Source: Thermoclostridium caenicola (GTDB taxonomy: Bacteria > Bacillota > Clostridia > DSM-8532). Taken from it: a stretch of 39,480 nt of DNA. This document shows, piece by piece, positions 33,429 to 35,701 of this stretch. The DNA lies in the NCBI RefSeq assembly GCF_900142095.1, contig NZ_FQZP01000020.1, positions 1-39,480 on the forward strand. The letters are read 5' to 3'. Below the pieces are notes generated by a model. The model searched no databases and had not been told where the DNA came from. It worked only from the letters and a program-made list of their open reading frames with translations. A program made the position numbers and the translations under genes. How positions within the stretch are numbered: position 1 is the stretch's first letter; each line of letters starts with the position of its first letter.

Positions 33429-33827
33429 GTGAAGCTGATTGATGGCAAGAGTGTTCTGTTGGGAATGGGCATCGGCATTATTATTGCGTCCATTCTTGGC
33501 TATATTTTTTTCCTCGGATACCAGCCCCAGCTTTCGGACGGAGAAATTATCAGCCGGGCAAGGCAGTTGGGGATGGTGGATCGATTTGATGCTGCCGGTG
33601 GCATCATAAGGAATCAGGACGGCAGCGTTACCTTAACCATCAGCGAGGGCGAAAGCGCGTCGCAAATTGCCGAACGCCTCTACAACGCAGGCATCATCGG
33701 CAGTTCCATTGAGTTTGAGATCATGGTCAGGAAAGGCAATCTCCAGGATGCCATCAGGCCCGGGCAATACCGAATCGATTACAAGGAAGATACCAGCGCC
33801 ATCATTCAAAAAATAACCGGTCAGTAG
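33429..33827 (+). CDS. Short MltG-like protein lacking the catalytic domain
   Basis: The 132-residue product has a membrane segment at about residues 8 to 30 (LLGMGIGIIIASILGYIFFL). Its single extracytoplasmic domain has VTLTISEGESASQIAERLYN and IEFEIMVRKGNLQDAIRPGQ, then YRI. That region resembles the LysM-like N-terminal subdomain of the MltG/YceG endolytic transglycosylase. The catalytic part with its Glu is absent, so an enzyme role is unlikely. A scaffold or peptidoglycan-binding role is inferred. It is the last gene of the cluster. GTG start with AAAAGGAAG upstream. Confidence 0.68.
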   Translation: MKLIDGKSVLLGMGIGIIIASILGYIFFLGYQPQLSDGEIISRARQLGMVDRFDAAGGIIRNQDGSVTLTISEGESASQIAERLYNAGIIGSSIEFEIMVRKGNLQDAIRPGQYRIDYKEDTSAIIQKITGQ

Positions 33828-34025: not shown

Positions 34026-34058
34026 AGGCAGATGATCCTATTTGGTCATCTGCCTTTT
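34026..34058 (+). terminator. Rho-independent terminator after tRNA-Leu
   Basis: AGGCAGATGA (34026 to 34035) pairs with TCATCTGCCT (34046 to 34055), with further T-G and C-G pairing inside, and is followed by TTTT. It lies 7 bases after the encoded CCA. Confidence 0.8.
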
Positions 34059-34059
34059 G

Positions 34060-34665
34060 ATATTCACTTTCAAAACAAAGATGACGGTGCATCAAAGAGT
34101 TTTACTTTATCAACCGTTTTTCAAAGCATTCAATTGTCTTGTCCTTCCATTGCTTATAGGCGTAAAACTTAAATCCCAATGAAGTCCAAAAAGCTGATTA
34201 TATAATTCTCTTCCGGAAATTCCCGAAATATCAAATATGTTTGATAATCCTCTTCCTTTCAATGTTAAATAATGAGCTTTTGTTTCTAACCCCAAGGTTT
34301 CAATAAGATTTTGCATGTGTGGAGCTGGGGAAACTGATTTTATAGCCAAAGGTCCACATCATTAAAAAATACCACTAATCGTCTTATATATTTATAGTGG
34401 TGAGAATTTTGCGACAGCCTTCTTTTTCATGTCAAATGAGATGCTTATTCTTTCAGATTGTTCGTTTTTAGATTAAGGATGTACCGTCAAGATTGGTACT
34501 GTCAAGAATTATACGAAAATGCATAACCTGCTTAGTAGTCAGCAGTTAGCGGTAAATTATTGTGAATCATCGTTGTGGTGATACTGTCACTCAGCCTTCC
34601 GGGCTTATATGGGTTTGGCTTTATGCTGGCAGCTCTTGCGTTACTGAGCGGCTTTTTCATGGGAT
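34060..34665. other. AT-rich gene-poor stretch with probable remnants
   Basis: The stretch between the tRNA terminator and the PadR promoter is richer in A and T than its surroundings and holds no intact recognisable gene. It contains a short minus-strand frame (34110 to 34349), an 11-base direct repeat, TACYGTCAAGA at 34482 to 34492 and 34497 to 34507, and the apparent end of a membrane-protein gene (34578 to 34670). I see no transposase or clear inverted repeats. It looks like a decayed insertion or deletion scar beside the tRNA. Confidence 0.45.
34110..34349 (-). pseudogene. Possible gene fragment, unrecognised
   Basis: A minus-strand open frame of 79 codons reads as a plausible protein end, with LGLETKAHYLTLKGRGLSNI and GRELYNQLFGLHWDL. 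No good ribosome binding site is visible before the TTG at 34349 or the ATG eleven codons later. Its codons are much more AT-rich than those of the flagellar genes. I do not recognise the family. It may be the remains of a longer gene, or chance. Confidence 0.25.
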
Positions 34666-34670
34666 ATTGA
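34578..34670 (+). pseudogene. C-terminal remnant of a membrane protein
   Basis: The frame at 34578 to 34670 reads ILSLSLPGLYGFGFMLAALA then LLSGFFMGY and a stop. This looks like the last transmembrane helices of a multi-pass transporter. There is no start region or ribosome binding site, and the upstream sequence in this frame shows no continued homology. Its stop codon lies inside the -35 box of the next promoter. Confidence 0.3.
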
Positions 34671-34695
34671 CAATACTATCGGCTGCCGATATAAT
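34667..34695 (+). promoter_or_regulatory. Consensus SigA promoter of the padR operon
   Basis: TTGACA (34667 to 34672) and TATAAT (34690 to 34695) are exact consensus boxes at the ideal 17-base spacing. The -10 box is embedded in a palindromic operator, so such a strong promoter is probably held in check by repression. Confidence 0.85.
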
Positions 34696-34729
34696 ATATC
34701 GTGTAACGATATAACGTAAGATGATATAA
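34687..34729 (+). promoter_or_regulatory. Palindromic operator array, likely PadR binding sites
   Basis: CGATATA-A-TATATCG (34687 to 34701) is a perfect 7-1-7 palindrome covering the -10 box. TATATCG (34695 to 34701) also pairs with CGATATA (34707 to 34713) around TGTAA, and GATATAA recurs a third time at 34723 to 34729. The half-site GATATA is therefore present in four copies between promoter and gene. PadR proteins commonly repress their own operon through such sites. The assignment is inferred from position. Confidence 0.65.
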
Positions 34730-34745
34730 CGGAAGGCGGTACAAT

Positions 34746-35066
34746 GTGTCTGAGAACATCGCGTTGACAGAGGCCGTTTACTATATCCTGCTATCCCTGT
34801 ATGAGCCCATGCACGGATACGGCATCATGCAAAAGGTTGAGCAGATGAGCAAAGAAAGGGTCAGGCTGGCGGCGGGTACCCTGTATGGTGCCATCAGCAC
34901 GCTGCTCGAGAAGGGATGGATCAGGGCGCTTCCCGGTGAAAGCAACAGCAGGAAGAAAGAGTATCTTATCACGGAAAAGGGTAAAGAAGCTGTTGAGCGT
35001 GAAGTCATCCGGCTCAGGGAACTGGTAGAAAACGGTGAAAGGATCACGGGAGGTAAGGGAATATGA
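34746..35066 (+). CDS. PadR-family transcriptional regulator
   Basis: The 106-residue protein is a minimal PadR repressor: a winged helix followed by a short dimerisation helix. Diagnostic stretches are YYILLSLYEPMHGYGIMQKV, RVRLAAGTLYGAISTLLEKG and SRKKEYLITEKGKEAV. The GTG start at 34746 has AAGGCGGT just upstream. It is preceded by a consensus promoter with a palindromic operator and overlaps a DUF2812 gene by 4 bases. Regulators of this subtype usually pair with DUF2812 membrane proteins. The inducing signal is unknown. Confidence 0.92.
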   Translation: MSENIALTEAVYYILLSLYEPMHGYGIMQKVEQMSKERVRLAAGTLYGAISTLLEKGWIRALPGESNSRKKEYLITEKGKEAVEREVIRLRELVENGERITGGKGI

Positions 35067-35611
35067 GGTTGACGGCCCGCAGGCTATTTTTTGTATGGGA
35101 CTTCGAGAAAGAGGAACGATGGCTCAACGAGATGGCTTCCAAAGGCATGAACCTGCAAGGGGTTAGCATTTGCAGTTATGTTTTTGAAGAAGGTACACCG
35201 GGGGAATACCAGTATCACGTGGAATGGCTGAAGTACAGGCCAAGCCATCCCGAAAGCGTTGCTTACATCCGGTTTCTGGAGGAAACCGGCGTGGAACATA
35301 TCGGATCTTTGATGAACTGGGTTTACTTTCGGAAAAAAAGGGCAGACGGCGCTTTCGATCTTTCCTCCGATTTGGATGCGCGCATTGACCATTTCAAAAG
35401 GATTAGCTGGCTGCTTTGGGTGTTGCTTCCCTGTGTCCTGATATTCATTGCGTCGCAGATTTACCAATGTCTGACTCATAAAGGCGTTTTACCGGCCCTT
35501 ATGCCGTTGATTGTGCTGGATATCCTGATCCTGGCATGCATCACGATGGGGCTTGTAAAAACACGCCTGACCTATAGAAGGCTGAAAAAAGAACGCTTGC
35601 TGAGGGAATGA
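35063..35611 (+). CDS. DUF2812-domain membrane protein
   Basis: The 182-residue protein has the DUF2812 domain at its N-terminus: RRLFFVWDFEKEERWLNEMA, KGMNLQGV, then EYQYHVEWLK. Two membrane segments follow, at about residues 114 to 133 (SWLLWVLLPCVLIFIASQIY) and 145 to 166 (LMPLIVLDILILACITMGLV). The start overlaps the padR stop (ATGA), so the two are co-translated. Members of this family are often encoded with PadR and seem to respond to envelope stress or drugs, but the function is not established. Confidence 0.85.
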   Translation: MRLTARRLFFVWDFEKEERWLNEMASKGMNLQGVSICSYVFEEGTPGEYQYHVEWLKYRPSHPESVAYIRFLEETGVEHIGSLMNWVYFRKKRADGAFDLSSDLDARIDHFKRISWLLWVLLPCVLIFIASQIYQCLTHKGVLPALMPLIVLDILILACITMGLVKTRLTYRRLKKERLLRE

Positions 35612-35674: not shown

Positions 35675-35701
35675 AAAGCCTGTCAATCAGGCTTTCTTTT
35701 T
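35675..35701 (+). terminator. Rho-independent terminator of the padR operon
   Basis: AAAGCCTG (35675 to 35682) pairs perfectly with CAGGCTTT (35688 to 35695) around TCAAT and is followed by CTTTTT. An alternative stem starts at AAGCCTG (35667 to 35673). The terminator overlaps the last codons of the convergent minus-strand gene. Confidence 0.75.

What the first reader, a model, noticed from the sequence alone, without database searches (positions are those of the whole stretch)
34667..34729. Perfect SigA promoter overlaid by a GATATA palindrome array
Consensus -35 and -10 boxes at ideal spacing are combined with a 7-1-7 palindrome over the -10 box and more half-sites downstream. A promoter this strong implies tight repression, most likely by the PadR protein it drives.
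Basis: partly seen in the sequence, partly recalled or inferred. Interest (0 to 1): 0.5.

Follow-up and report, generated by a model that had tools for sequence, protein, structure and literature searches.

The report
Self-repressing PadR–DUF2812 promoter with operator array
A strong bacterial promoter is overlaid by a row of near-identical docking sites, most likely for the repressor whose gene it drives, so that the repressor and a membrane protein of unknown role limit their own production; this is an ordinary kind of switch with an unusually well conserved site layout.

Summary
TTGACA (34667-34672), 17 bp, TATAAT (34690-34695) is the only perfect promoter in the window; CGATATA-A-TATATCG (34687-34701) overlies the -10 and more half-sites follow. 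The operator unit was misread. In 88 homologous loci (87 distinct), facing half-sites lie exactly 5 bp apart (TATATCG-N5-CGATATA; 194 pairs), while back-to-back gaps vary, so the 7-1-7 palindrome is only the junction of two 7-5-7 dyads. The first dyad fills the -35/-10 spacer; others continue to 34743. Dyads lie upstream in 86 of 87 loci and in none of the gene bodies, and sit at the operon start when an extra gene precedes padR. No dispersed regulon was seen. The operon is padR (34746-35066) plus a DUF2812 gene (35063-35611), a predicted two-helix membrane protein almost absent from the papers searched. The motif differs from published PadR operators (ATGT/ACAT, TACT/AGTA). Verdict: a known kind of switch with a sharply defined operator grammar that I did not find described.

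The parts
34667..34672 (+). -35 hexamer TTGACA
   Evidence: 12/12 promoter match; TTGACA sits exactly 2 nt before the first dyad in 64 of 82 homologous loci scored
34690..34695 (+). -10 hexamer TATAAT, made from the right arm of dyad 1 plus two bases
   Evidence: TATAAT at this place in 44 of 82, at least 5 of 6 bases in 77 of 82
34675..34693 (.). operator dyad 1 (ACTATCG-N5-CGATATA), filling the -35/-10 spacer
   Evidence: 2 mismatches to TATATCG-N5-CGATATA here; none in congeners G001, G003, G004
   Evidence: the gap between dyads varies among homologues, so this is not the conserved unit
34695..34713 (.). operator dyad 2 (TATATCG-N5-CGATATA, no mismatch), over the expected start of transcription
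34710..34728 (.). operator dyad 3 (TATAACG-N5-TGATATA), 15 bp from dyad 2
   Evidence: 2 mismatches; 1 mismatch in the three congeners
34725..34743 (.). weak operator dyad 4 (TATAACG-N5-CGGTACA), over the ribosome-binding region
   Evidence: 3 mismatches; 2 in the three congeners
34731..34736 (+). probable ribosome-binding site GGAAGG
   Evidence: read from sequence; inference
34746..35066 (+). padR: 106-aa PadR-like winged-helix regulator, GTG start
   Evidence: PF03551 E=1.1e-13; AlphaFold model pLDDT 91.0, top structural matches are PadR proteins, Z 12.4 to 1xma
35063..35611 (+). DUF2812 protein, 182 aa, alpha/beta domain plus two long hydrophobic helices; overlaps padR by 4 nt
   Evidence: PF11193 E=2.9e-30; model pLDDT 95.2; overlap from coordinates
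35675..35695 (+). terminator-like hairpin after the operon
   Evidence: consensus match only
34026..34055 (+). terminator-like hairpin after tRNA-Leu, upstream of this unit
   Evidence: consensus match only

Best explanation
This is the self-repressed promoter of a two-gene operon, padR-DUF2812. Shown by sequence: a consensus promoter whose spacer, -10 box, start region and leader carry four copies, two to three of them clear, of the dyad TATATCG-N5-CGATATA at steps of 20, 15 and 15 bp. Inferred: PadR dimers bind the dyads side by side. The first dimer covers the space between -35 and -10, the second covers the start site, and together they keep RNA polymerase off a promoter that would otherwise be very active. 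When PadR leaves the DNA both genes are made, and new PadR closes the loop. Most likely, but only inferred, the release signal comes through the DUF2812 membrane protein or the condition it deals with, because the two genes are nearly always paired and this PadR lacks the drug-binding tryptophan of LmrR.
For: Gap of exactly 5 between facing half-sites in 194 pairs (at most 3 pairs at any other gap under 20), shuffle mean 0.08. Exact dyad upstream in 68 of 88 rows. At most 2 mismatches within 200 nt upstream in 83 of 87 distinct loci, and 0 such sites in 69,600 bases of gene body; three of the other four carry an exact dyad 298-383 nt upstream, before an extra gene. The remaining one, L116, lacks both operator and DUF2812. 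TTGACA exactly 2 nt before dyad 1 in 64 of 82 scored. Congeners G001, G003, G004 keep the whole array while the sequence upstream diverges; G002 lacks PadR orthologue, DUF2812 and array. In 148 genomes the exact dyad occurs at 11 places (12 sites), 7 of them beside a DUF2812 gene.
Against: No binding, footprint or expression data. The other 4 of the 11 places have no DUF2812 gene nearby, as many as the 4 sites of the reversed control. Conversely, 32 of the 148 genomes have a DUF2812 match and only 7 of these have the exact dyad; some others carry changed half-sites, and some relatives show no clear dyad in the stretch read. The canonical PadR motif ATGT-N8-ACAT is absent from the promoter; one copy lies across the start codon at 34744-34759 and is not kept in the congeners. 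Dyad 1 of this genome has 2 mismatches. The step from dyad 1 to dyad 2 peaks at 21, 24 and 31 bp, which does not fit one simple helical phase. The inducer is unknown.
Confidence: 0.86

Rival explanations
1. Another regulator, not the PadR encoded here, uses the array.
For: Binding was not tested; G000 has three other PadR-like matches.
Against: The array tracks this PadR subfamily in 86 of 87 loci and is missing where the gene is missing (G002). The paralogue subfamily has its own half-site (TATTACG/CGTAATA) in the same layout.
Confidence: 0.07
2. The repeats act as RNA: hairpins in the 5' leader (attenuator or RBS-masking) rather than DNA operators.
For: Dyads 2-4 lie in the expected leader, and inverted repeats can pair.
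Against: The first dyad lies upstream of the expected transcript yet is the more symmetric: 53 of 83 first dyads are perfectly symmetric, against 45 of 132 later ones.
Confidence: 0.03
3. The palindrome is a by-product of an AT-rich promoter and has no regulatory role.
For: A single 7-1-7 palindrome is not rare: 4 perfect ones in the window.
Against: Dyads in 86 of 87 loci with fixed 5-bp gap and near-fixed promoter geometry.
Confidence: 0.02
4. PadR binds the 7-1-7 palindrome itself as its dimer site.
For: It is a perfect palindrome over the -10, kept in congeners G001 and G004; G003 has one mismatch.
Against: The back-to-back gap is 1 in only 5 counted pairs and otherwise mostly -4, 2, 3, 5, 11, 12 and more, whereas facing half-sites of one dyad are 5 apart.
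Confidence: 0.06

Closest known systems
LmrR / LadR / PadR operators, ATGT-N8-10-ACAT (PMC3506622 and PMC4517056, passages read)
   Same: Small PadR winged-helix repressor acting on an inverted repeat in its own promoter; the model matches LmrR structures at Z about 12.
   Different: ATGT-N8-10-ACAT within 200 nt upstream in only 1 of 87 loci; half-sites and gap differ; the position of the second modified Trp (Trp96) of LmrR is not Trp here by the profile alignment.
cdPadR1 of Clostridioides difficile, TACT-N11-12-AGTA (PMC5050560, abstract and passages read)
   Same: PadR-s2 protein binding two inverted repeats in its own promoter, one overlapping -35/-10, with an AT-rich core.
   Different: TACT-N11-12-AGTA upstream in 0 of 87 loci; cdPadR1 is reported with 200 candidate genomic sites, whereas here only the own operon and one related site have at most 1 mismatch.
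bcPadR1-BC4207 of Bacillus cereus (PMC3506622, passages read)
   Same: Two-gene unit of a PadR repressor and a membrane protein of unknown function, proposed to be autoregulated; BC4207 raised resistance to the bacteriocin AS-48.
   Different: Putative operator there is ATGT/ACAT-like; whether BC4207 is a DUF2812 protein was not tested here.
HAAS-PadR dyads (DUF1700/DUF1129/DUF1048), including Listeria LltR and LftR operons (PMC11237479, PMC6624303, PMC4517056, passages read)
   Same: A stand-alone PadR coupled to a membrane-linked partner, proposed as an alternative to two-component systems; LltR and LftR are reported as autoregulatory.
   Different: DUF2812 is modelled as beta-alpha-beta-beta-beta-alpha-beta-beta plus two long helices, not the three-helix HAAS fold; the term DUF2812 does not occur in the main text of PMC11237479.

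Membership tests
PadR family (PF03551), small PadR-s2 type | PadR winged-helix domain over the Pfam cut-off | tested here: met
   51.4 bits against cut-off 27, E=1.1e-13
PadR family (PF03551), small PadR-s2 type | About 110 aa, one C-terminal helix for dimerisation | tested here: met
   106 aa; helices 9-17, 24-34, 43-56, strands 59-61 and 72-75, single C-terminal helix 77-101. Top structural matches are PadR (1xma, 5dym, 4ejo), with MarR-type proteins within 1 Z of them. Dimerisation itself not tested
PadR family (PF03551), small PadR-s2 type | Canonical operator ATGT-N8-10-ACAT | tested here: not met
   Absent from the promoter, one copy across the start codon; upstream in 1 of 87 loci. This marks the well-studied operators, not the protein family
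LmrR-like multidrug-sensing PadR | Trp96 equivalent in helix alpha4 for drug stacking | tested here: not met
   The window protein's only Trp is at 58, outside alpha4; Trp in the 26-residue stretch taken as alpha4 in 5 of 87 homologues
DUF2812 (PF11193) | Match over the Pfam cut-off | tested here: met
   105.2 bits against 27.8; 71 of 71 scanned proteins (window plus 70 downstream proteins) match at E <= 0.001
HAAS-PadR signalling dyad | Partner with three-helix HAAS domain (DUF1700/1129/1048) | tested here: not met
   Only DUF2812 matched in Pfam at E <= 0.001; model is alpha/beta plus a helical hairpin
Autoregulated PadR operon | The regulator binds and represses its own promoter | not testable with these tools
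   Conservation supports it; needs gel shift and mutant

The most novel reading that the evidence does not exclude
PadR-DUF2812 is a distinct membrane-coupled signalling pair, parallel to the proposed HAAS-PadR pairs. The cytoplasmic domain of the membrane protein DUF2812 takes PadR off an array of overlapping dyads, and each subfamily has shifted its half-site (CGATATA, CGTAATA, CTRTATA) while keeping the 7-5-7, 15-bp-step grammar, which gives insulated switches when several copies share one cell.
Probability: 0.3. Interest if true: 0.55.

Novelty: new variant of a known kind. Interest (0 to 1): 0.36.

Why it matters
PadR repressors are common small regulators, yet few of their operators are defined in the papers seen here. 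A dyad kept exactly in 68 of 88 rows from many genera gives a ready search pattern and a clean test set for how PadR proteins read DNA. It also ties DUF2812, a family found in only 2 papers of the library searched, to a self-repressed and presumably inducible operon, so its inducer can be sought with a simple reporter.

Tried and rejected
Regulon search: TATATCG-N5-CGATATA with up to 2 mismatches in G000-G004 gave counts near the reversed control (G000 14 against 11, G001 15/12, G002 7/10, G003 17/10, G004 17/14), the arrays themselves included, so distant matches are mostly chance. The only other site in G000 with at most 1 mismatch lies before a PadR gene of 28% identity on C9. One-mismatch sites outside the arrays in congeners lie inside open reading frames: G001 C38 in an 884-aa ORF, G004 C53 in a 100-aa ORF.

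Fold of DUF2812: Foldseek found no match at E <= 0.001 among solved structures. The VIA-align rows cover mainly the long helical hairpin, 101-182, which many unrelated proteins share. The alpha/beta part alone was not modelled, so no claim of a new fold is made.

RNA-hairpin reading: rejected on the position and symmetry of dyad 1. I first read the paralogue's operator (C48, TTACGTTTAGTGATATA) as unrelated; it fits the same layout with changed half-sites. Helical phasing of dyads was considered; steps of 21 and 31 fit it, 24 does not, so it is not claimed.

Literature: 0 papers held both DUF2812 and PadR. DUF2812 occurs in 2 papers, once in each. A search needing four of CGATATA, TATATCG, PadR, operator, Clostridi returned one paper, which does not hold 'PadR'. 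The search for TATATCGATATA was swamped by the other term and shows nothing either way. Most subscription journals are not held.

Full report
What is there. The window lies in a 2.89-Mb draft genome (G000, contig C20). At 34667 a perfect -35 box (TTGACA) is followed after 17 bp by a perfect -10 box (TATAAT, 34690-34695), 12 of 12 consensus bases. No other such promoter occurs in the window. The promoter drives padR (34746-35066; PF03551, E=1.1e-13), which overlaps by 4 nt a gene for a DUF2812 protein (35063-35611; PF11193, E=2.9e-30). Terminator-like hairpins after tRNA-Leu (34026-34055) and after DUF2812 (35675-35695) suggest a separate two-gene unit; these are consensus matches only, 6 found in the region against 3.2 expected.

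The repeats. Read as half-sites, the region is acTATCG-gctgc-CGATATA-a-TATATCG-tgtaa-CGATATAACG-taaga-TGATATAACG-gaagg-CGGTACA. That is four copies of a 19-bp dyad, TATATCG-N5-CGATATA, at 34675, 34695, 34710 and 34725, with 2, 0, 2 and 3 mismatches. Congeners G001, G003 and G004 carry the same array in cleaner form, while the sequence further upstream diverges. G002, of the same genus, has neither a PadR orthologue nor DUF2812, and its best sites have 2 mismatches, no more of them than the control.

Which unit is conserved. I took 80 homologues from named genomes (the best 80 of 581 kept by the tool) and 8 loci, the window's own included, from this genome and its relatives; one is a duplicate, leaving 87. 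Counted on all 88 rows, half-sites that face each other are 5 bp apart in 194 pairs, with at most 3 pairs at any other gap below 20; gaps of 20 and more (such as 20 and 21) recur because the dyads form arrays. Shuffles give 0.08 gap-5 pairs on average. Back-to-back gaps vary: -4 (a shared core, CGATATATCG) in 125 pairs, 1 in 5, 2 in 14, 3 in 8, 5 in 17, 11 in 42, 12 in 26. The 7-1-7 palindrome is therefore the place where two dyads meet, not the binding unit. Dyads with at most 2 mismatches occur within 200 nt upstream in 83 of 87 loci, and 0 times in 69,600 bases of gene body.

Exceptions. Of the four loci without a near site, L108, L114 and L126 carry exact dyads 349, 383 and 298 nt upstream, at the start of an operon in which a small extra gene precedes padR. 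The fourth, L116 (Floricoccus), lacks both the operator and DUF2812. So the array follows the promoter, not the coding sequence.

Promoter geometry. Of 82 loci where it could be scored, 64 have a perfect TTGACA exactly 2 nt before the first dyad, 44 have a perfect TATAAT starting at its 16th base, and 37 have both. The dyad thus fills the 17-bp spacer and supplies the first four bases of the -10 box. Later dyads follow mostly at 15-bp steps (88 of 91 later steps). The step from first to second dyad peaks at 21, 24 and 31 bp; this genus has 20. The 82 include weak picks that count against the rule (L116, a 3-mismatch match; L007, an outlying first site). The 5 loci left out are L108, L114, L126 and L080, whose operator lies farther upstream, and L059, which holds too little sequence.

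Is there a regulon? In G000 the only sites with at most 1 mismatch are this one and a related inverted repeat before a PadR gene of 28% identity on C9. An exact-dyad search of 148 genomes of the class found 12 sites at 11 places. Seven places lie beside a DUF2812 gene. The other four do not: three fall inside long open reading frames, one between genes, and I saw no PadR-like frame within the 1.5 kb read on either side (by eye). The reversed control pattern also has 4 sites. So no dispersed regulon is seen. In the other direction, 32 of the 148 genomes have a DUF2812 match and only 7 of them have the exact dyad, so most DUF2812 operons of the class must use changed half-sites or other control.

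Subfamilies. G000 has a second padR-DUF2812 pair on C48 (54% identical PadR). Its promoter and those of relatives such as L028, L139, L140 and L142-L144 carry TATTACG and CGTAATA arms in the same layout; two further relatives (L012, L013) use TATACAG-N5-CTATATA. Not every locus in that set shows a clear dyad: L145, L148, L157 and L162, for example, show none of these in the 190 nt read.

The proteins. PadR is modelled with confidence (pLDDT 91.0) and its top structural matches are PadR proteins: 1xma (Z 12.4, rmsd 2.2, 95 aligned), 5dym (Z 12.3, rmsd 2.4, 92 aligned), with LmrR at Z about 12 and MarR-type proteins close behind. The sequence search of solved structures also gives LmrR entries as best hits. 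In that profile alignment the position of LmrR Trp96 is not Trp, and Trp is present in the stretch taken as alpha4 in only 5 of 87 homologues. A drug-stacking sensor like LmrR is therefore unlikely. DUF2812 is modelled at pLDDT 95.2 as an alpha/beta domain followed by two long helices; from their sequence these look membrane-spanning (inference). Of 71 proteins scanned (window plus 70), 71 match DUF2812. Of the ten loci left out of that set, L066 and L116 show no DUF2812, L102 shows only a remnant, and the other seven show the motif by eye.

How it likely works. PadR dimers occupy the dyads, block the polymerase, and so limit both genes; this is the usual logic of PadR operons such as LmrR, cdPadR1, bcPadR1-BC4207 and Listeria LltR/LftR (PMC3506622, PMC5050560, PMC6624303, PMC4517056: passages read). 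The HAAS-PadR pairs proposed as substitutes for two-component systems (PMC11237479, passages read) suggest that the membrane partner passes the signal. For DUF2812 this is a proposal only.

Novelty. PadR autoregulation is known. The dyad TATATCG-N5-CGATATA is not the published ATGT-N8-10-ACAT (1 of 87 loci upstream) or TACT-N11-12-AGTA (0 of 87). I found no description of it, or of PadR-DUF2812, in the papers searched, a library that lacks most subscription journals.

Noticed in passing
window 34056-34660: About 650 bp separate tRNA-Leu(CAA) from the padR promoter here, against roughly 130-160 bp in G001 and G003 and about 270 in G004; the extra DNA seems to hold gene remnants, among them a short frame at about 34560-34664 that reads like the hydrophobic end of a transporter (impression only, not searched). 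tRNA-Leu is upstream of padR in all four carriers.
   Followed up: partly
L049 1230-1300 (G000:C9:47735-47776): A PadR gene of 28% identity has its own inverted repeats, TATATAGAT/ATCTATATA, over a TTGACA promoter; perhaps the same kind of operator for another PadR subfamily.
   Followed up: partly
window 34744-34759: A canonical PadR motif ATGT-N8-ACAT lies across the padR start codon; it is not kept in the three congeners, so probably chance.
   Followed up: yes
L107: A padR-DUF2812 pair with the array sits in a contig labelled as an archaeal MAG (Methanocalculaceae), and others in Sphaerochaeta and Coriobacteriia MAGs: gene transfer or misbinned contigs.
   Followed up: no
L108, L114, L126 upstream of padR: Extra small first genes between the operator and padR: two short membrane-type proteins (L108, L126) and one CxxC-bearing protein (L114); candidates for further partners.
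   Followed up: no
L007, L009, L095 upstream of padR: Hybrid arrays in which CGATATATCG is flanked by attacgtt/aacgtaat-like arms (clearest in L007), intermediate between the two half-site types.
   Followed up: no
window 33429-33827: A 132-aa protein matches only the first 62 positions of the YceG (MltG) profile, just over the cut-off: a short transglycosylase-like protein or fragment.
   Followed up: no
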